From the NCBI RefSeq assembly GCF_010692725.1, contig NZ_JAAFZB010000096.1, positions 1,116,001 to 1,180,000 of the forward strand: a stretch of 64,000 nucleotides of DNA, in the 5' to 3' direction. The DNA is from Flavihumibacter soli (GTDB lineage: Bacteria; Bacteroidota; Bacteroidia; Sphingobacteriales; Sphingobacteriaceae). A model generated the notes under the pieces. The model had not been told where the DNA came from. It saw only the letters and a list, made by a program, of their open reading frames with translations, and searched no databases. Numbering within the stretch: the first letter of the stretch is position 1; every line of letters begins with the position of its first letter. The translations under genes and the position numbers were made by a program. Below, one piece after another: positions 53,005 to 62,196 of the stretch.

Positions 53005-53286
53005 TCTGCCTGGGGAATTACAGATCCCTATAGCAGATCTGTATTTCAAATCTTCGAAACTCCATGCTAAACGGAAACCTGATTAAATTTCATGGCGAAG
53101 TCCTTTGCGAATTCGAAAATCCTCGGATCCGGATAATCGTTTATAAATCTTTACCTTACCTGTTGCGTAAATCTCAGACCTCTTGTGGGACGTTGAAAAT
53201 CTTACTATCTTCTATTAAATATTGTGCATTGCATAATTACTATCTTAACTGATTACTATGGCTATTTATAGACATTTAATAGTTTG
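53005..53286. other. AT-rich gap before the cyclase gene
   Basis: No terminator, RNA or clear TAnnTTTG box was found in these 282 bases. A 62-codon frame at 53064-53252 lacks any family motif and is not called. Confidence 0.5.
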
Positions 53287-56200
53287 ATGATGCTTCCCCA
53301 AATCAATGAGAAGTCAGATTTAATCATTGCGAGTTTTGTTCCCGCACTTTTACGAAAACAATTTAAAATTGCGCCAAACAGAAAACCTAAATCAGAATTG
53401 CTTGGTGATCAGGCTGCGTTATTATGGATTGACATCTGCGATTTTTCATTGCTGTCGAACCGATTACTATTAAATCATGCAAAAGGCGTAGAACAACTTT
53501 CCCGGATTCTTCAAAATCATTATGACCATGTTTTGAAGCAGTTTTTGAAGTTTGGCGGAGAACCGATGGTATTTGCCGGCGACGGAGTACTGGCTGCATG
53601 GCATTGTACATCATCGGAATTACCCGGAAAAACAAAAGATGCAATTGCTTGCGCAAGCAGTCTCTTAGATATACAGAGTGCAAGTGATGATCTGGGGCAA
53701 CCCCTTTCATTACATGTAGTTACAGCTTGTGGACCTTGCCAGCTACTCGAGTTAGGCGGATCCGACCATCGATGGCTCTATACGGTTCTGGGAGACTCTT
53801 TAAATGATCTCAGGCAGACATCCAGAAACAGGCAGCCCGGAAAGGTGCTCTTATCACCTGCAGTTATAACAAGCTTAGGAAGGCAGATTAAATATATTCC
53901 TGCTGAACATAATTGCGGTATACTGGATGCTCCGGTGAGAGGCTCACATCCTGCGCCGAAAGCTGGAAGCATCTCATTAGAAGCGGAAGCGGTCAAGTCT
54001 TTGAAGTTGTACCTCCCTAAAGCAATCTCCCCGGACCTTAATTTCGACCAGCTAAAATGGATCGATGAATTAAGACCTGTTACCATTGTTTTTACGCAAT
54101 TGCACAGCGTGGTTCCCAATGTCAACGTTGCGGCCGGGTTATTACAAAACGTAGTTAAAATTATCACTCCGATCGTTGCTAAGCATGATGGTATATTAAA
54201 TCAGGTTTGGGTTGATGAAAAGGCTGCAAACATCCTAATCATTTTCGGCCCGCCGCCCTCAGCTCATCGCGACAACCCGGCAAGAGGACTCAGGACAGCA
54301 CTGGATATTAAACAGGCTCTTAGCAAAACAGAATTCATAAATAGTGTTGGAGTGACAAGCGGAAAAGCATTCTGCGGACTCCTTGGGAATGATACCTTCA
54401 GGCAGTACACCGTGATCGGAGACGTAGTGAATCTGGGAGCACGCTTAGCTCAGCTGCAAACAGAAAACATCTGCTGCGATGAAGCTACCGTGAAAGCCAC
54501 ACGCGATGAATTTACATTTAACCAACCGAACCTGGTTACAATAAAGGGACTATCTCAAAAAGAACGGGTATGGGAACTTGAATCGGGAACGGTCAGGCAG
54601 ACTATTGAACCGAATGAAATTCCCCTGGTCGGGCGAGAGCAGGAACTTTTGTTTTTACGGGATTGTTATTCGACCGCTCTCTCCGGGGAATGTGTATCTG
54701 TTGTGCTGGAAGGTGAGAGTGGCCTGGGGAAATCCAAATTACTTGGAGTTTTCCAAAATGATATTAAATCTAAGGGTGGTCTCGTACTAACAGGTTCGGG
54801 AGATCCGGTGGAACGCGGAATCCCTTATTCCGGCTGGAAAAAAATATTTTCAAACTTGATGGGACTAGAGGATGCAGCGGATAAACAAACAAAGCAGGAC
54901 CTGATAACAGAATTTCTTGGCGATGAACTTTCGGAACTGGCAAGTCTGTTAAACATCATTTTCACCTTCGACTTTCCGGAAAGCGACATAGTAAGATCAT
55001 TCACTATTCAACAGAGATTTACTGAAACCAAGAAACTGCTGGTTGAACTGATTAACCGGCATGCGAAAAAACGTCCTTTACTTATAATTATTGATGATGC
55101 TGTGTGGCTTGACCATGCTTCATGGAAGCTGGCTGTTGAAATAGCTGCCAAGGTCTATGGCTGTTTCCTGATAGTATCGGTGCAGACAACCCAGGGCTTA
55201 AAGGAACTCCAGTCCTTAAAAGATGCCGGCGCTATCCATTACAAGCTCGAAGGACTTTCTAACGGCTATTTATTGAAACTTATTACGGCAGCCCTGGGGG
55301 TATCAGAAGTGCCTGATAAGATTATTGAAACGCTCACCTCGTTATCCAAGGGCAATCCTTTTTTCTGTTTTGAACTCATACAATCTTTGATCAATGAAAA
55401 AGCAGTACTTGTTACTAACGGGGAATGCAGCTTAGACAGCATTATTGATTTGGATAATTTCCCCTTACCGGAAACTATACAGGGTACATTAAGCAGAAGG
55501 ATAGATAGCCTGGAGCACGGGCCTAAGCTGGCTTTAAAAGTGGCAAGCGTCACCGGCTTAAGATTTCCCACCGACCTTGTGCAAACCATTTTTCCTATAC
55601 CTCAGGAAAAAGCTTTAGTGCCATCGTTTCTTGTTAAAGACAATTCAATGGGACTTCTGTGGCATGATATGATCGATGGTTCCCGGGGTTACGCTTTTAA
55701 TAATTCCATTACCCGGGATGTTGCCTATGAAATGCTGCTCTTTGAACAAAAACAGGAGCTGCACTTACAAATAGCGCAATGGTATGAGAAAATATACGCG
55801 GATAACCAGGCTCCTTTCTATGCACGGCTTGCATACCACTGGGAAAAAGCGGGAAACAATATCAAAGCTGCCGACTATCTCGAGAAACAGGCTATCCGCC
55901 TATTCAGTTCCGGATTTGCTAAACAATCTGTGGAAACCGGACTACGGGGGGTAGAATTACTGGGAGTCGAAATAGTCCGCGAACCGAACGAGATCGGTCT
56001 TAGGATCGGTGAGAATATGGCTATAATCGCGGGTTTGATGGCTAACCGTGCACCCTCAGAGCTGCTCCTGCTGAAAACACTAACAGATACTCAAACAGAA
56101 CTTGTAATTACAATGCTATTGCGCATTGGCCCTTTTGCATTTCAAAGTAAACAGATAGACCTGTTCGCTCTTATCTCTGTCACCTGTCTTAGAATGACGC

Positions 56201-57258
56201 TTGAACATGGGAGCTCTAAGTCAGTGGCCGATGTGTATTCCATGTACTCAGTGATCTACAAGGGAATGACCGGCGATCATATTGGAGCCTACCAATGGAG
56301 TGACCTTGCAATGCAGGCTGACAAAAAAAATAACAACACCCTATTTTCCAGTGTCGCATTTGTTCACACATGGTTTCATAATCATTGGGTGAATCCTTTG
56401 CCGGCCAGTCTTCTATTAGCTTTACAGGCGGCCGACGCCGGTTTCAAGGCCGGAGATATCCTGTTTGCATGCTTTAATCTTTCGGGGTATGTCGTCTATC
56501 TTACCGCCTGCGGGAGACCCCTGCTGGAGGTGATGGATGTAGCCCGGGCGCATCTTTCGAATAACCAGAAGAGAGTAATGAATGCTGCTTTTCATCTTAT
56601 CCTGGAATTACAGTTCGCTAAGGCGCTGGCCGGAGAAACAAACGACTACCTGAGTCTGACTGACGATGAGTACATTGAAGAAACCGACATTTCTTCCATC
56701 TGCAATACAGAACTTGGCAACCAGATAGGCTACTACCTGGTAGCACGGGTGAAATTACATACCCATTTCGGCAAGTGGCAGGATGCCCTGCTATGGGCGG
56801 AACAGTCAATGCCTTTATTGAAAGCATTTGAAGGCCAGATTGCAGAAATAGACCTGGTTCAATACCGTACAGTCGCTGCATTGACGGGCCTTGCCAAAGG
56901 CGATTTCGACGACAGGAAAAAGCTAACAGAGCTTGCAATGGATTCACTGCAAATCATGCGGAGATGGGCTGCGATGTGTCCAGCTAATTTTCAACACAAA
57001 GCCTTGTTCCTGGAGGCATTTTTAGCAGGTGTGGAAGGTGATGCCGATAAATCAGAACTACTATTTGCTGAGGCCGGGAAACTTGCTGTTACAGGCGGAT
57101 TCTTAAACGATATCGCACAAATAAATGAATGCAGGTTAATCTTACAGAAGTCGCGGAATGAGATCCTTACTGCTTTAAAGTCGACGCTCGATTCATATCA
57201 GAACTGGGGAGCCTATGGCAAAGTCGAGTACCTTCGAAAGTTATATGAAGTTCCCTAA
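53287..57258 (+). CDS. Double class III cyclase-AAA ATPase-TPR protein (soluble adenylyl cyclase-like)
   Basis: 1323 residues from the ATG at 53287 (a TTG precedes it). Domains: first cyclase (about 38-200) with metal-binding D49 in LWIDICDFS and D99 in VFAGDGVLAAW; second cyclase (about 262-430) with K312 in VDEKAAN, YTVIGD and the NxxxR pair N382/R386 in VVNLGARL; AAA ATPase (about 445-760) with Walker A GESGLGKS (476-483) and Walker B LLIIIDDAVW; then a long helical, TPR-like tail. This order is that of mammalian ADCY10. The active-site residues of both halves look intact, so it probably makes cAMP. No membrane segment is visible. It converges with the KAS III-like gene, 28 bases apart. 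Confidence 0.85.
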   Translation: MMLPQINEKSDLIIASFVPALLRKQFKIAPNRKPKSELLGDQAALLWIDICDFSLLSNRLLLNHAKGVEQLSRILQNHYDHVLKQFLKFGGEPMVFAGDGVLAAWHCTSSELPGKTKDAIACASSLLDIQSASDDLGQPLSLHVVTACGPCQLLELGGSDHRWLYTVLGDSLNDLRQTSRNRQPGKVLLSPAVITSLGRQIKYIPAEHNCGILDAPVRGSHPAPKAGSISLEAEAVKSLKLYLPKAISPDLNFDQLKWIDELRPVTIVFTQLHSVVPNVNVAAGLLQNVVKIITPIVAKHDGILNQVWVDEKAANILIIFGPPPSAHRDNPARGLRTALDIKQALSKTEFINSVGVTSGKAFCGLLGNDTFRQYTVIGDVVNLGARLAQLQTENICCDEATVKATRDEFTFNQPNLVTIKGLSQKERVWELESGTVRQTIEPNEIPLVGREQELLFLRDCYSTALSGECVSVVLEGESGLGKSKLLGVFQNDIKSKGGLVLTGSGDPVERGIPYSGWKKIFSNLMGLEDAADKQTKQDLITEFLGDELSELASLLNIIFTFDFPESDIVRSFTIQQRFTETKKLLVELINRHAKKRPLLIIIDDAVWLDHASWKLAVEIAAKVYGCFLIVSVQTTQGLKELQSLKDAGAIHYKLEGLSNGYLLKLITAALGVSEVPDKIIETLTSLSKGNPFFCFELIQSLINEKAVLVTNGECSLDSIIDLDNFPLPETIQGTLSRRIDSLEHGPKLALKVASVTGLRFPTDLVQTIFPIPQEKALVPSFLVKDNSMGLLWHDMIDGSRGYAFNNSITRDVAYEMLLFEQKQELHLQIAQWYEKIYADNQAPFYARLAYHWEKAGNNIKAADYLEKQAIRLFSSGFAKQSVETGLRGVELLGVEIVREPNEIGLRIGENMAIIAGLMANRAPSELLLLKTLTDTQTELVITMLLRIGPFAFQSKQIDLFALISVTCLRMTLEHGSSKSVADVYSMYSVIYKGMTGDHIGAYQWSDLAMQADKKNNNTLFSSVAFVHTWFHNHWVNPLPASLLLALQAADAGFKAGDILFACFNLSGYVVYLTACGRPLLEVMDVARAHLSNNQKRVMNAAFHLILELQFAKALAGETNDYLSLTDDEYIEETDISSICNTELGNQIGYYLVARVKLHTHFGKWQDALLWAEQSMPLLKAFEGQIAEIDLVQYRTVAALTGLAKGDFDDRKKLTELAMDSLQIMRRWAAMCPANFQHKALFLEAFLAGVEGDADKSELLFAEAGKLAVTGGFLNDIAQINECRLILQKSRNEILTALKSTLDSYQNWGAYGKVEYLRKLYEVP

Positions 57259-57286
57259 ACAAGTTAAGATATCTAAGAAACCCCAG

Positions 57287-58306
57287 TTATTTGTTTCTCT
57301 CAAACAACATTGCATTGGTATGCATGTCAGGCCCGATAGCAAGCAGCATTAGGAAGTCTTTACTAACAGATTCACTTTCATCTGCCCAGGCTAAAGTAAC
57401 AGGTATGTTCGCAGGCGCCATATTACCAAAGGGTTTGATCGTGTTGATGTATTGACCGGGCTGTATAACCTCACTCCAATGATCCATCAATACGGTCGAG
57501 GCCTGATGAGAGATCAGGGCAATATCTGAACCTTTCAGGCTGTGACGTTGTAATAGTTGCAATACGACCTGCGGGGGAGAGTTGACTCCAAAATCTTTAA
57601 ACCCGGCTATTCCTTCATCGGTGATTTGAAAGAAGCTATCAGTCCAGAGTTTCTGAATATTGCCGATTGGCGGACTTATCCCAAAGCTGTTGCCTGAGGA
57701 ATACATGCTCCCATAATAATGTGAATCGGTTAAGGTACACTGGTCTAGAAGTGTCCACTTTTGGCGATCGCTGCTGTCAGCCAACACGGCAGCCCCGGCT
57801 CCGTCACCTGCACTTACAGCCTGCGGTGTCTGATAGCTTACATTCCTGGTCCAGTTACCTCCGATACAGATCAATGCGTTGGAGATCCGCCCTGCCCGAA
57901 TGAGACCGTCGGCCATAAGCAGTGAGGCATTATAATTAGAAAACTCGCAATCCACAGGGATCACCCAAACGCTTTTTTGCAGTCCCAGCTCCTGGTGCAA
58001 CAGAGAAAGAACATTGGGATTCCGGTATTGGCTTACAGAACCTGTCCCGATCAAAAGGTCTACCTGATCAGAAGTCATCTTTGCATTTTCCAGTGCATTC
58101 TTTGCAGCGGGAAGCATTATGGAAATAAGATCCTCACCCGTATCTAAAACACGTCTCTGTTCATATCCCTGGAATAGCTTTTCACCGTCGGTCGAATTAT
58201 GTTTTAACCAGTCAAATACCGGATCATCATTAATACGGATCTTCGCCGGCACAGCATAACCGAGCCCTGTGATCCGGGGCAAGTTCTCACTCATTTGTTC
58301 AGCCAT
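57287..58306 (-). CDS. KAS III (FabH)-like thiolase-fold enzyme
   Basis: 339 residues. The His and Asn of the FabH triad are clear: ISHQAS (H267) and KPFGNMAPANIP (N295). The nucleophile is probably C120 in PVDCEFSNYNASL, though the surrounding residues differ from the usual CAGF and the spacing to the next conserved block is two residues longer. QAVSAGDGAGAAVL is typical. It may join acyl groups from CoA or ACP. Its start overlaps the flavoprotein stop by 16 bases, so they are coupled; with the ThDP enzyme it forms a three-gene operon. It is unlikely to be the housekeeping FabH. Confidence 0.8.
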   Translation of the reverse strand: MAEQMSENLPRITGLGYAVPAKIRINDDPVFDWLKHNSTDGEKLFQGYEQRRVLDTGEDLISIMLPAAKNALENAKMTSDQVDLLIGTGSVSQYRNPNVLSLLHQELGLQKSVWVIPVDCEFSNYNASLLMADGLIRAGRISNALICIGGNWTRNVSYQTPQAVSAGDGAGAAVLADSSDRQKWTLLDQCTLTDSHYYGSMYSSGNSFGISPPIGNIQKLWTDSFFQITDEGIAGFKDFGVNSPPQVVLQLLQRHSLKGSDIALISHQASTVLMDHWSEVIQPGQYINTIKPFGNMAPANIPVTLAWADESESVSKDFLMLLAIGPDMHTNAMLFERNK

Positions 58307-60015
58307 TTAGGTTCAACCAGTTTAAAGTGCTTCTGCAGAACGATCTCAGCTGTCTGCAATGCTCCCTCTACCCAGGTCTGGTTCGTAGAATACGCTTCAC
58401 CGCAGATGAAGCATGGAAAATCTTCAACGGGTCTTGTCATTTCTTCAAGTATCTCCCATGTTTTATAACCTGAATTCCAAAAATGCACTGCACCACCGTA
58501 AGGATCATCAGACCAATCCATATATGCCGCTTCCAGGGGCTCAGGTGCATCCGGGATATTATGCATTTCCATTAACTGCCGGTGCATTTCCATAGCCATT
58601 TTGTGCGGTGCAGGATGTGATTCCCAGTTTTTCTTTAGCCTTACACCCCACTCGTCCTGTTCATCCTTGTGAGCATGGGGCATCGGCTTTCTTTCAAAGG
58701 CCTTTGATTTGGCCCTGAGGTTTTTGATCTTACTATTACCAGGCAAAGGCCACTCTATAGTATTGCCCGGCCCGAGTGGAGAATCCCTTAAACCTCCCCA
58801 GAATTCCGAATTACTCATATCGTTGTAGGCCATGATCATCGAGTTTTTATTCTCAGGATCACCGCCCGGCTCGCGACCTTCAACTCCCCAGTAATAACAT
58901 TGTCTTAGCGGCAGGTCAGTGAGAGATCGCCCTGCCTTAACAAAGGTTTTTTCCCACCAGGGATATTCATAAGCAAGAAATATTTTATAAAGATCCACCG
59001 GTTCGACAGAGTTCATCATAAACCGGACGTGAGGAGCTCTTACCGGATCCAGCACGGGCCCCTTCTGCTGAAGTAATTCCATGGATCTTTTGGGCATGGC
59101 CAGCACAATTGCTCTCGCTGTAACGGAACTTTGGCCCTTCCCATTTTTAACGGATAATTCCACACCTGTCGAACCGTCAGCAAGTGTTGCTTCTTCAAAT
59201 GCCTGTAACCATGAATTCAGATGAACTTCCCCACCGGCACTTTCAAACTGCTTTTGCAAGGTCCAGGGAACAGAATCATAGCCGTCGTTCATTAAGTAAT
59301 ATTTGACCGTAGGCGTAAAATTGAAATACTCTGCAATCGAATTTACAGCATTCGCATTCATTCCCAGTGAGTCATAGCCGACTGTGGTCTTAGCCAGCTG
59401 GTACGCTTCATTGCTCATCACCTTTGCCAAGATATTCCAAAACCCATGATGATATAAAGGAATGTCATCCAGGGTCGCTTCCTGAAGATATTTTTCCAGG
59501 TCATCGCCGCTCAAATCCTTAACCTTTGGAAATAACTTCTCGACAGCCCAGCCTATCAGATCACTTCCGGTATTTCCTTGTTTCAGCCATTCGGACTCTT
59601 CATCCGACAGATTATAGGGCAATACATCAGGATCTGACAATTGGTAACTTCTTATCCTGTGCCCGCGCGTATAAACTATATTTATGGGCTCGTCAACATC
59701 CTGTTCATGTCGCGGTAACTTCAGCTCATTTTCTATCAAAGCCGAGACAAGCTTTTGAGAAGAGACGTATCGCATTCCTCCAATTTCACAATTCATATGC
59801 GGAAATCCGGGAGCTCTTGCCGATAGCAGACGTCCCCCGATGCGGTCGCTCCCTTCAAACAGAGCAATTCGCAACTTCTTATCCTTTGATCCTTTAAGGA
59901 ATGGAGCATTGATATTATCTGCCATGATCAATCTCCAGGCTGTATAAACTCCGGAAATGCCACCCCCGATTATCACTACATCATAATCAGGATCTTTTGC
60001 AACATCTTCTTTCAT
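58291..60015 (-). CDS. Flavin amine/L-amino-acid oxidase-like protein
   Basis: 574 residues. The N-terminus is an FAD-binding Rossmann motif (VVIIGGGISGVYTAWRL, glycines at 17-22), followed by LFEGSDRIGGRLLSA and CEIGGMRYV, and the C-terminal FAD block ICGEAYSTNQTWVEGALQTA. These mark the amine oxidase/LAAO superfamily, which oxidises amines or amino acids with O2. No signal peptide is visible. The substrate is unknown; a partner ThDP enzyme that acts on 2-oxo acids lies upstream, which fits an amino acid substrate. A 62-base gap separates them. Confidence 0.85.
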   Translation of the reverse strand: MKEDVAKDPDYDVVIIGGGISGVYTAWRLIMADNINAPFLKGSKDKKLRIALFEGSDRIGGRLLSARAPGFPHMNCEIGGMRYVSSQKLVSALIENELKLPRHEQDVDEPINIVYTRGHRIRSYQLSDPDVLPYNLSDEESEWLKQGNTGSDLIGWAVEKLFPKVKDLSGDDLEKYLQEATLDDIPLYHHGFWNILAKVMSNEAYQLAKTTVGYDSLGMNANAVNSIAEYFNFTPTVKYYLMNDGYDSVPWTLQKQFESAGGEVHLNSWLQAFEEATLADGSTGVELSVKNGKGQSSVTARAIVLAMPKRSMELLQQKGPVLDPVRAPHVRFMMNSVEPVDLYKIFLAYEYPWWEKTFVKAGRSLTDLPLRQCYYWGVEGREPGGDPENKNSMIMAYNDMSNSEFWGGLRDSPLGPGNTIEWPLPGNSKIKNLRAKSKAFERKPMPHAHKDEQDEWGVRLKKNWESHPAPHKMAMEMHRQLMEMHNIPDAPEPLEAAYMDWSDDPYGGAVHFWNSGYKTWEILEEMTRPVEDFPCFICGEAYSTNQTWVEGALQTAEIVLQKHFKLVEPKWLNK

Positions 60016-60077
60016 AAAACATTATCTGTTTGAAGGAATGTGAATAAAACAATGTAATAATTTGTCAATTGGAACCC

Positions 60078-61883
60078 TTATTTTGGTTTCGCCGGCGCAT
60101 ATAAGGGATTATAATATGGCGGAACGCTCGCACGATTTATGTTGGCGACAATAACCTGCGGCCGGCCTTCTTGGTTCGCGAGTTTCAGTACGGATGGCAT
60201 CAGATCCTTCAATTCCCGCGGATCATTAACCAAGTATGCATCGGCACCCAGTCCCTCGGCAACTTTTGTAAGATCCGGACTACCAAGCTCGTAAAGCTTT
60301 TCCCAGATACCAGGATCTCCCTTATCAGGAAAGAACTGTTCCTGACCCTGGCTGACCATCAATAAATTATTATCATTCAGAATGATCCAGATCGCACCAA
60401 TATTATTTTTTTTAGCAGTGGAGACCTCCGACCCGTGCATCATAAATGCACCATCACCAACAATGGCGATGCAGGTCGCGGCGGGTCGCCCGATCTTTGC
60501 ACCGACAACAGCAGCAACACCGAAGCCCATAGGCCCCATGGATAATGCACTATGGATTGCCCATGGAGCACTTACCTCCAAATAATGGGTAGCCCAGCCG
60601 ACACAGTTCCCCGCATCAATAAAGATCTTTGTCTCTGAATTTGCAGGCAGTGATTCCTGCAGGCAACGCATCATCGCAGCCGGTTCAATTGGACTGGCAT
60701 TCGAACTATACTGTTCCGGGCTAATAAATGCAGGGTGCTGCTTTTTAATTTCCGCGACTAAGGATTTCCGGGTATTGACAAGGTCTTCGTCTTTCGGAAA
60801 TTTAGGAATGAGCTTTTCCATATCCCTTATGAAAGCGCCTGCTTCAGCTACGATCCCATGGCTTACCGGAAAAGAACGACCGATTATTGATTGATCGATA
60901 TCCACCTGTATTAGGGGTCCTTTACCAGTGGGCTGTAATAACGGCAGCCATTTATTGGTAGATAATTCTCCGAGCGAGGAGCCAATAATTAAAAGCGCAT
61001 CATACTTATCCTCATCATTTTCTGCCTGCATCCAGTAGTGCGGCCACATACAATTGGCAATACCATAAACCCGCAGGGAGAGTGGGTGAGATTCAGGAAA
61101 AATACCCTTCGCATCTGCCGTTGTAATTACGGGGATGCCGTAGTATTCTACAAACCGGGTAAATACTGCTAAATTATCTTTCAGGGCTTCGCGACAACCA
61201 TTTCCTAAAAATATCAAAGGTCTTTTAGCTGCTGTAAAAACTTCCATCGTCATCTCTGCCTCTTCAATGGCCGCGCCTCTTTGCACTGATCGATAGCAGT
61301 TAGTATTGTCGGGAAGATGAGGAGAAACGATCTGTTCAACAGTTACGTTGTTCGGCATACTGATGTGTACTGAACGGCGAGGTATTGCTAAGGCATCCCG
61401 TAAGGCCTGCTTAAAAATAGCTTCAAAGTCCGAGCTGTCGGACACCATCGCACTGTAACCCGTTGCGGCAGAATAGATCGCTTCAACGTTCAGTTTTGCA
61501 TCTGTACCCTCCTGCAGATAGCCGAGGCCAAAATAACTTTCATCAACTTCACCCGTTAACAGCAGCATTGCCGAACCGTCATTCTGAGCATTCATCACGC
61601 CTGTCAGCGCATTCGTGGCACCAGGGCCCGAGGTAGTCATTACCACTCCCATCTTTCCCGTTGCACGGCAATAACCGTCGGCCATATAAGCCGCACCGGT
61701 TTCATGCCGGCAAATAATGTAATTGAACTGATCGCCCTTGTTCTTAAAAGCTGTGAGCAGGTTCGCCAATCCGCCGCCGGGTATCCCAAAAACATGGTCT
61801 ACCCCTTCGAGGGACAAATAGTGTAATAATGCATCGGCGACAGTGATTTGGGGGGTGTTAGGAGGTGCAGATTGCTGAGCCAT
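60078..61883 (-). CDS. ThDP-dependent enzyme, acetolactate synthase-like
   Basis: 601 residues with the three-domain ThDP fold. The catalytic glutamate is E61 in CRHETGAAYMADG; the cofactor motif GDGAFMMHGSEVS (near 456) leads to ILNDNN. A central Rossmann domain with IFLGNGCREAL is present. It resembles acetolactate synthase, but there is no regulatory subunit or ilv gene nearby and it is the first gene of an operon with an oxidase and a KAS III-like enzyme. A 2-oxo acid decarboxylase or carboligase is a reasonable class; the product cannot be read. Confidence 0.85.
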   Translation of the reverse strand: MAQQSAPPNTPQITVADALLHYLSLEGVDHVFGIPGGGLANLLTAFKNKGDQFNYIICRHETGAAYMADGYCRATGKMGVVMTTSGPGATNALTGVMNAQNDGSAMLLLTGEVDESYFGLGYLQEGTDAKLNVEAIYSAATGYSAMVSDSSDFEAIFKQALRDALAIPRRSVHISMPNNVTVEQIVSPHLPDNTNCYRSVQRGAAIEEAEMTMEVFTAAKRPLIFLGNGCREALKDNLAVFTRFVEYYGIPVITTADAKGIFPESHPLSLRVYGIANCMWPHYWMQAENDEDKYDALLIIGSSLGELSTNKWLPLLQPTGKGPLIQVDIDQSIIGRSFPVSHGIVAEAGAFIRDMEKLIPKFPKDEDLVNTRKSLVAEIKKQHPAFISPEQYSSNASPIEPAAMMRCLQESLPANSETKIFIDAGNCVGWATHYLEVSAPWAIHSALSMGPMGFGVAAVVGAKIGRPAATCIAIVGDGAFMMHGSEVSTAKKNNIGAIWIILNDNNLLMVSQGQEQFFPDKGDPGIWEKLYELGSPDLTKVAEGLGADAYLVNDPRELKDLMPSVLKLANQEGRPQVIVANINRASVPPYYNPLYAPAKPK

Positions 61884-62196
61884 ACTTTGATGATTGAAGC
61901 TTATCTTATACTTAAATCTAAGAATAGATTTTGACTATTAAGAAACAATCGGTCGGTATTGTAATCAATTGAATAAAAATGTTTTATCCTTCACATCACA
62001 ACATTAAATCCAGACAGATTAGAGCTCAGATACCTTTTGATTATTGGCCCATTTTCATTTTTTTAAGTTAGGATGCCTTCGTTCATACTGCTTAGACTGC
62101 TTCTAAATAGTTTAAATGTAAACCCAGCAGTCAACAACTGCATATTTTTCACCAATAAATAGATACTTTTGCGTCACAAATAATTTTCAAGAGGTA
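61884..62196. other. Divergent intergenic region, ThDP operon and sdhC
   Basis: It holds the sdh promoter box near its right end. No TAnnTTTG box was found for the minus-strand ThDP operon, no terminator and no riboswitch (in particular no TPP-type core) was recognised. Confidence 0.55.
62164..62171 (+). promoter_or_regulatory. sdh promoter -7 box (TACTTTTG)
   Basis: TACTTTTG is identical to the metK box and lies 25 bases before the sdhC ATG. A T-rich run about 15 bases upstream is a weak -33 candidate. Confidence 0.55.

What the first reader, a model, noticed from the sequence alone, without database searches (positions are those of the whole stretch)
57287..61883. Three-gene operon: ThDP enzyme, amino-acid-oxidase-like flavoprotein, KAS III-like enzyme
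The three genes run in one direction; the last two overlap by 16 bases. An oxidase can turn an amino acid to a 2-oxo acid, a ThDP enzyme can decarboxylate or ligate a 2-oxo acid, and a KAS III-like enzyme can condense an acyl thioester. The set is self-consistent as a short route from an amino acid to an acyloin- or ketone-type small molecule, and I do not know a described cluster with exactly these parts. The product is inference.
Basis: partly seen in the sequence, partly recalled or inferred. Interest (0 to 1): 0.72.

Follow-up and report, generated by a model that had tools for sequence, protein, structure and literature searches.

The report
Acyloin-type pathway with cysteine-free ketosynthase
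Two bacteria of one genus carry a block of four genes, also found on a Rhizobium plasmid, that probably turns amino acids into a hydroxy-ketone small molecule; one of its enzymes is a ketosynthase relative that has lost the residue ketosynthases normally work with.

Summary
In detail: three minus-strand genes encode a ThDP carboligase, an L-amino-acid-oxidase-like flavoprotein and a KAS III-like protein. A fourth, convergent gene for a soluble-adenylyl-cyclase-type protein belongs to the block. The four genes lie at the same site in Daejeonella oryzae and in the same order on a Rhizobium jaguaris plasmid; a rearranged version is on a Flammeovirga plasmid. In the genus, KAS, oxidase and cyclase occur in the same 2 of 20 genomes; 17 of the 18 others have the site without the block.

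The ThDP enzyme is not the housekeeping acetolactate synthase; [quoted passage not shown] The KAS III-like protein lacks the nucleophilic Cys (Phe in 4 of 4; Cys in 20 of 20 comparators) but keeps His and Asn, so condensation through an acyl-enzyme is unlikely. Proposed: oxidase, then carboligase, then KAS-like decarboxylation of the beta-keto acid. Substrates and product are unknown, and all chemistry is inference. The logic resembles scytonemin and carbazole biosynthesis with different parts: a new variant of a known kind.

The parts
60078..61883 (-). ThDP-dependent carboligase (acetolactate-synthase superfamily; nearest solved relatives BbmA and CsmA)
   Evidence: Pfam TPP N/M/C; PDB BbmA 4.5e-89, CsmA 1.9e-59, first acetolactate synthase 3e-52; Glu61 kept; second Asn of the GDG..NN motif is Asp504 in 4 of 4 block members, Asn in 4 of 4 comparators (residue roles recalled)
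58291..60015 (-). L-amino acid oxidase-like flavoprotein
   Evidence: PF01593 85 bits; ancestral LAAO 8jhe E 6.3e-101 over residues 10-570
57287..58306 (-). KAS III-like protein without the nucleophilic Cys (probable start 58294)
   Evidence: ACP_syn_III and ACP_syn_III_C over cut-off; Phe122 at the active-site Cys of solved KAS III; His267 and Asn295 kept
57941..57943 (-). codon of Phe122, at the place of the KAS III nucleophilic Cys
57506..57508 (-). codon of His267 (place of the KAS III His)
57422..57424 (-). codon of Asn295 (place of the KAS III Asn)
53284..57258 (+). soluble-adenylyl-cyclase-like protein: two class III cyclase domains, AAA_16 ATPase, long C-terminal region; convergent with the trio, 28 bases from its end
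   Evidence: human ADCY10 chains E 2.4e-33 with both cyclase domains matched; AAA_16 and one Guanylate_cyc stretch over cut-off; R. jaguaris ortholog 36.9% over 98%
61884..62196 (.). intergenic region between the divergent ThDP gene and sdhC; probable promoter region of the trio (not tested)
53005..62196 (.). whole block, between a metallophosphoesterase gene and sdhC; absent from this junction in 17 of the 18 other genomes of the genus that could be examined

Best explanation
The block is a horizontally shared cassette for a small acyloin- or hydroxyketone-type metabolite. Proposed route: (1) the flavoprotein oxidises an L-amino acid, probably a large hydrophobic or aromatic one, to the 2-oxo acid; (2) the ThDP enzyme decarboxylates one 2-oxo acid and ligates it to a second, giving a labile alpha-hydroxy-beta-keto acid; (3) the KAS III-like protein, which cannot form the usual acyl-enzyme because Cys is Phe, uses its retained His267/Asn295 pair to decarboxylate that beta-keto acid and steer the resulting enol(ate) to one product by protonation, cyclisation or direct addition to an electrophile; (4) the soluble-adenylyl-cyclase-like protein makes or senses a signal tied to the pathway. 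Shown: gene identity, conservation as a block, loss of Cys with retention of His and Asn, and that the ThDP gene is not ilvB by family score. Inferred: every chemical step, the substrates, the product, the role of the cyclase, and horizontal transfer.
For: Block conserved: D. oryzae, same site, KAS 76%, oxidase 84%, ThDP 82%, cyclase 69%; R. jaguaris plasmid, same order and convergent cyclase, 45/47/52/37%; Flammeovirga plasmid, 41/41/51% for the trio. In the genus: KAS 2 of 20, cyclase 2 of 20, oxidase 2 of 20, the same two genomes; ThDP 2 of 400 sampled in the order, the same two. Site without the block in 17 of 18 others. ThDP nearest BbmA/CsmA; [quoted passage not shown] Oxidase nearest L-amino acid oxidases. 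[quoted passage not shown] Scytonemin precedent: ScyB deaminates, ScyA couples, ScyC cyclises and decarboxylates. In FabH, His244 and Asn274 stabilise the enolate made by decarboxylation while Cys112 carries the acyl group. Cys is Phe in 4 of 4 block members, Cys in 20 of 20 comparators.
Against: No activity has been measured and no substrate can be read from sequence. Only four loci are known, two of them congeners. In Flammeovirga the ThDP gene is not in one transcription unit with the oxidase and KAS genes, and in place of the cyclase there is a kinase/AAA/GAF/SpoIIE protein. Oxidase relatives without the pathway exist: 9 of 9 other oxidase loci examined had no KAS match. The block oxidases' grouping in the tree is only modestly supported, with long branches and an odd make-up of the R. 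jaguaris row. The AlphaFold model of the KAS-like protein was poor (pLDDT 52), so the pocket could not be examined. Loss of Cys could also mean a structural, non-catalytic subunit.
Confidence: 0.55

Rival explanations
1. The KAS III-like protein still builds a carbon-carbon or ester bond with a thioester, by direct attack without an acyl-enzyme or with another nucleophile, as CqsB1 (carbazole) or the acylating ketosynthase of xenocyloin do, so the product is an acylated or chain-extended acyloin.
For: A KASIII-like enzyme partners the ThDP enzyme in carbazole, and a ketosynthase with acylating activity is reported for xenocyloin. Family membership, His and Asn are kept.
Against: Cys is Phe in 4 of 4, and no Cys or Ser is shared by all four at residues 120-124: Cys120 is Asn in R. 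jaguaris and Flammeovirga, Ser123 is Asn in Flammeovirga. The DEW tryptophan present in 3 of 4 comparators shown is not kept.
Confidence: 0.2
2. The KAS-like protein is a catalytically dead partner subunit or scaffold, as PqsB is for PqsC (PqsB recalled), pairing with another KAS III or holding ThDP enzyme and oxidase together.
For: Loss of the nucleophile; PqsC and a PQS biosynthetic enzyme are among the matches.
Against: His267 and Asn295 are kept in 4 of 4 across two phyla, unexpected in a dead subunit. tblastn at 1e-8 finds no second KAS match in the stretches fetched around the blocks.
Confidence: 0.15
3. The set is catabolic or redox-related rather than biosynthetic: an amino acid oxidase giving H2O2 and 2-oxo acids, with a ThDP decarboxylase disposing of them.
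For: Oxidase relatives occur without the other genes: 9 of 9 non-block oxidase loci examined lack a KAS match and 8 of 9 lack a ThDP match at 1e-8.
Against: A KAS-like enzyme has no evident role in such a route. The block oxidases group together in the tree, with modest support (82/81), and occur with this ThDP subfamily and the KAS in the four loci found.
Confidence: 0.1

Closest known systems
Carbazole assembly in Streptomyces (CqsB7/CqsB3/CqsB1; Nzs)
   Different: Uses an aminotransferase, a 3-hydroxybutyryl-ACP partner and the cyclase CqsB2; here an oxidase, a Cys-free KAS and an adenylyl-cyclase-like gene. No sequence of these proteins was compared.
Scytonemin core ScyA/ScyB/ScyC
   Same: Deamination, acyloin coupling of two 2-oxo acids, then an enzyme that cyclises and decarboxylates the labile beta-keto acid.
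   Different: ScyB is a leucine dehydrogenase homolog. The ThDP enzyme scores 241 bits against the ScyA cut-off of 1020. That ScyC is unrelated to KAS is recalled, not tested.
Xenocyloin pathway (Xenorhabdus bovienii)
   Same: Indole derivatives made with a ketosynthase of acylating activity; the ThDP enzyme and the acyloin nature are recalled.
   Different: Gene content not checked here; no sequence was available for comparison.
BbmA / CsmA (PDB 8x3x, 8x3z)
   Same: Nearest solved relatives of the ThDP enzyme; [quoted passage not shown]
   Different: Second Asn of the metal motif is Asp in all four block members, Asn in BbmA. Among plasmids the block enzymes stand apart: 51-52%, next best 31%.
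Human soluble adenylyl cyclase (ADCY10)
   Same: Two cyclase domains matched in the same order by the fourth gene; an AAA ATPase domain follows.
   Different: Bacterial, conserved beside a biosynthetic trio; a Lys of ADCY10 at the nucleotide site is Gln (residue roles recalled).

Membership tests
Biosynthetic acetolactate synthase IlvB (TIGR00118) | score over curated cut-off 538.35 bits | tested here: not met
   272.5 bits; another gene at G000:C90 reaches 699 bits
ThDP carboligase superfamily | three TPP domains, N-terminal Glu, GDG metal motif | tested here: met
   second Asn of the NN motif is Asp504
[quoted passage not shown]
   only sequence nearness to BbmA/CsmA
ScyA (NF035923) | score over cut-off 1020 bits | tested here: not met
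   241 bits
L-amino acid oxidase (Amino_oxidase superfamily) | PF01593 over cut-off and full-length similarity to solved LAAOs | tested here: met
   substrate not testable
VioA (NF053546) | score over cut-off 600 bits | tested here: not met
   70 bits
KAS III (FabH) enzyme | Cys-His-Asn triad | tested here: not met
   Phe122-His267-Asn295
KAS III (FabH) enzyme | FabH family score over cut-off (TIGR00747, 292 bits) | tested here: not met
   83 bits
KAS III Pfam families | PF08545 and PF08541 over cut-off | tested here: met
   of the other three, R. jaguaris passes both, D. oryzae and Flammeovirga pass PF08545 only
Carbazole cluster | dedicated cyclase (CqsB2 kind) and ACP beside the core | tested here: inconclusive
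   no fifth gene shared by the blocks among the ORFs listed, but ORFs under 100, 120, 180 and 250 aa respectively were not listed
Soluble adenylyl cyclase (ADCY10 kind) | tandem cyclase domains then AAA ATPase, metal Asp pair in the first, Asn/Arg in the second | tested here: met
   Pfam finds only the second cyclase domain, the first is seen in the ADCY10 alignment; residue roles recalled; activity not testable
TOMM kinase/cyclase (TIGR03903) | score over cut-off 705.75 bits | tested here: not met
   119.7 bits

The most novel reading that the evidence does not exclude
A Cys-free KAS III clade acts as a free-standing beta-keto-acid decarboxylase or C-C coupling enzyme (His/Asn chemistry without an acyl-enzyme). 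With the oxidase and the carboligase it makes a diffusible acyloin-type signal, and the soluble-adenylyl-cyclase-like protein beside it is the signal's receptor or output: a self-contained, horizontally moving synthase-receptor cassette.
Probability: 0.13. Interest if true: 0.8.

Novelty: new variant of a known kind. Interest (0 to 1): 0.55.

Why it matters
If right, it shows that a ketosynthase fold can be recruited, after loss of its nucleophile, to control the fate of the unstable beta-keto acids that ThDP carboligases make, a problem that scytonemin and carbazole pathways solve with other parts. It would also give some Bacteroidota and a rhizobium a compact, testable three-enzyme route, and link it to a bacterial relative of animal soluble adenylyl cyclase.

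Tried and rejected
Ordinary acetolactate synthase: rejected on the IlvB cut-off and the separate IlvB gene. Ordinary FabH: rejected on the missing Cys and the family cut-offs. Tryptophan oxidase VioA: 70 of 600 bits. Chance neighbourhood: rejected on conservation of the block.

Led nowhere or little: the one genome-contig scan used only two short peptide patterns; of 42 matching stretches 2 were relatives, D. oryzae and a distant Verrucomicrobia KAS III with Cys. The R. jaguaris and Flammeovirga proteins do not fit these patterns, so the scan could not have found such relatives. Viral-contig scan: 59 stretches, no relative. Samples of 395 phylum genomes (single protein, E 1e-40) and 395 class genomes (four-row alignment, E 1e-35) gave only the window's genome. 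AlphaFold model of the KAS-like protein: pLDDT 52.4, pTM 0.57, not used further; no fold search was run. The search for BbmA and CsmA gave one relevant paper, which speaks of CsmA only; the structural paper is not held. A search for Cys-less ketosynthases gave two listings, not opened; passages of a FabH structure paper were seen and not used. The last literature search found no paper. The Paraburkholderia ThDP gene at 31% has no oxidase or KAS annotated in the stretch shown. The Staphylococcus plasmid records (6 of 13) with an oxidase match were not examined.

Rows dropped: two further KAS III-type loci of the own genome (L063, L064) gave no match at 1e-5 and are not among the 20 comparators. 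Of those 20, 18 are the best-scoring other hits of the family search and look like one KAS III type, so they are not independent.

Full report
What is there. Pfam matches pass their cut-offs. The window is G000, contig C96, 1116001-1180000. A genome that the tool puts in the same genus, G453, shares contig length and the KAS locus with Daejeonella oryzae DSM 19973, so I take the window's genus to be Daejeonella.

The block has a fourth gene. Converging on the trio, 28 bases from its end, is a 1324-aa protein with AAA_16 and one Guanylate_cyc stretch over cut-off. Its best PDB matches are human soluble adenylyl cyclase ADCY10 (E 2.4e-33), with both cyclase domains matched in order. Aligned with the R. 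jaguaris protein, the first domain keeps the two Asp-bearing motifs and the second the Asn/Arg motif; the stretch that holds a Lys in ADCY10 has Gln in both (the residue roles are recalled).

Conservation. In D. oryzae the same four genes lie between the same neighbours, degP-phosphoesterase and sdhC, with identities of 76% (KAS), 84% (oxidase), 82% (ThDP) and 69% (cyclase). Rhizobium jaguaris plasmid pRCCGE525c has ThDP, oxidase, KAS in that order with the cyclase convergent: 45, 47, 52 and 37% for KAS, oxidase, ThDP and cyclase. Flammeovirga kamogawensis plasmid p1 has oxidase-KAS, then an AAA protein, then on the other strand a second flavin amine oxidase and the ThDP gene, with a TonB receptor beyond: 41, 41 and 51% for KAS, oxidase and ThDP. 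Its AAA protein carries kinase, GAF and SpoIIE domains and no cyclase match.

Co-occurrence. Of 20 genomes held of the genus, 2 have the KAS, 2 the cyclase, 2 the oxidase: the same two. Of 400 genomes sampled in the order, 2 have the ThDP enzyme at E 1e-80, the same two. In the other 18 genomes of the genus I looked at about 1.5 kb upstream of sdhC: 17 of 18 have degP, the phosphoesterase or both there, and none of the 18 has a match to a block gene at 1e-4; one (L046) has neither neighbour. So the block looks like a unit gained or lost at one site. G+C of its genes is 45-48% against 44% for the window, a weak difference that proves nothing.

Rarity. KAS relatives: 1 of 395 phylum genomes at E 1e-40 and 1 of 395 class genomes with the four-row alignment at E 1e-35, in both cases the window's own. 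In 151 genomes of the family, 114 have some KAS III match at 1e-12, but after the two blocks the best is E 3.2e-22 at 32%. Oxidase: 5 of 395 phylum genomes at 1e-25, the own one included. Plasmids: 5 of 72,556 records match the KAS, two at 41-45% (the two blocks) and three at 24-25%. For the ThDP enzyme 72 plasmid records match at 1e-40, 40 of them listed; the best two, at 51-52%, are the two blocks, and the third is 31%. Of 9 other oxidase loci examined (four Bacteroidota genomes, five plasmids, 19.5-25.7 kb each), 0 have a KAS match and 1 has a distant ThDP match (22%, Pseudoalteromonas). In a tree of 13 oxidases the four block members group together with modest support, 82/81; some rows have long branches and the R. 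jaguaris row has an unusual make-up.

The ThDP enzyme. By family score it is not IlvB: 272 bits against a cut-off of 538, with a 699-bit gene elsewhere in the genome. Its best solved relatives are BbmA and CsmA. [quoted passage not shown] the latter is not held and was not seen). The N-terminal Glu is kept. The second Asn of the GDG..NN motif is Asp in 4 of 4 block enzymes and Asn in 4 of 4 comparators (that this residue binds the metal is recalled).

The flavoprotein. Best match an ancestral L-amino acid oxidase over residues 10-570 (E 6.3e-101), then amine oxidoreductases, an L-lysine oxidase and further L-amino acid oxidases. VioA is a weak match (70 of 600 bits). The substrate cannot be told.

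The KAS III-like protein. In HMMER alignments to solved KAS III structures its Phe122 stands at the Cys of the Cys-Ser-Gly motif (2ebd and 3h76). In a wider alignment Phe stands there in 4 of 4 block members and Cys in 20 of 20 comparators (the 18 best other hits of the family search, which are much alike, one other KAS III of the own genome, one Verrucomicrobia), while His267 and Asn295 are kept in 24 of 24. No Cys or Ser at residues 120-124 is shared by all four. The DEW tryptophan seen in 3 of 4 comparators shown is absent. The C-terminal G-x-G of the 4 comparators shown reads G-Pro/Leu-Asp (Asp327) in 4 of 4 block members. A review, PMC10054515, of which I read passages, describes Cys112 as acyl carrier and His244/Asn274 as stabilising the enolate from decarboxylation. 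So the protein has kept the decarboxylating half of the KAS III machinery and lost the acyl-carrying residue. That it is a decarboxylase is my inference.

Mechanism by analogy. In carbazole biosynthesis an aminotransferase, the ThDP enzyme CqsB3 and the KASIII-like CqsB1 act in this order, CqsB1 condensing decarboxylatively with an acyl-ACP (PMC7466098, passages). In scytonemin, ScyB, ScyA and ScyC deaminate, couple, and cyclise with decarboxylation (PMC4870267, passages). A snake-venom L-amino acid oxidase with the ThDP enzyme NzsH and a tryptophan synthase makes indole acyloins (PMC9822442, passages), so an oxidase in the first place is chemically workable. A ketosynthase of acylating activity is reported for xenocyloin (PMC4578411, passages). 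The block here would be a further version with an oxidase first and a Cys-free KAS-like protein last.

Is it in print? Searches for xenocyloin, BbmA/CsmA, acyloin plus oxidase plus ketosynthase, alpha-hydroxy-beta-keto acid terms, Daejeonella gene clusters and a last combination showed no description of this block in titles, abstracts or the passages opened. Most listed papers were not opened and the library lacks most subscription papers, so this is weak.

Verdict. New variant of a known kind.

Noticed in passing
53284-57258: Bacterial protein whose best solved relative is human soluble adenylyl cyclase, with tandem cyclase domains and an AAA ATPase; near full-length ortholog on the R. jaguaris plasmid, while the other plasmid matches listed (14 of 16) cover 62-64% at 25-28%.
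   Followed up: partly
L031:19468-21036: A second flavin amine oxidase sits beside the ThDP gene in the Flammeovirga block, perhaps supplying the second 2-oxo acid.
   Followed up: partly
L031:14252-19426: In Flammeovirga the AAA protein beside the KAS gene has kinase, GAF and SpoIIE domains instead of cyclase domains.
   Followed up: partly
L039:11995-21370: Nostoc sp. UHCC 0926 plasmid: an oxidase relative is followed, after a transposase gene, by another large AAA family ATPase and a response regulator.
   Followed up: no
L040:13883-15310: Pseudoalteromonas sp. NC201 plasmid: an L-amino-acid-oxidase-like gene is followed closely by a distant ThDP enzyme (22%), a possible independent pairing.
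   Followed up: no
60078-61883: Second Asn of the ThDP metal motif is Asp in all four block enzymes, a possible subfamily marker.
   Followed up: partly
L061 (G489, contig 26): sdhC of one genome of the genus reads as two pieces, the second with stops inside; perhaps an assembly or sequencing fault.
   Followed up: no
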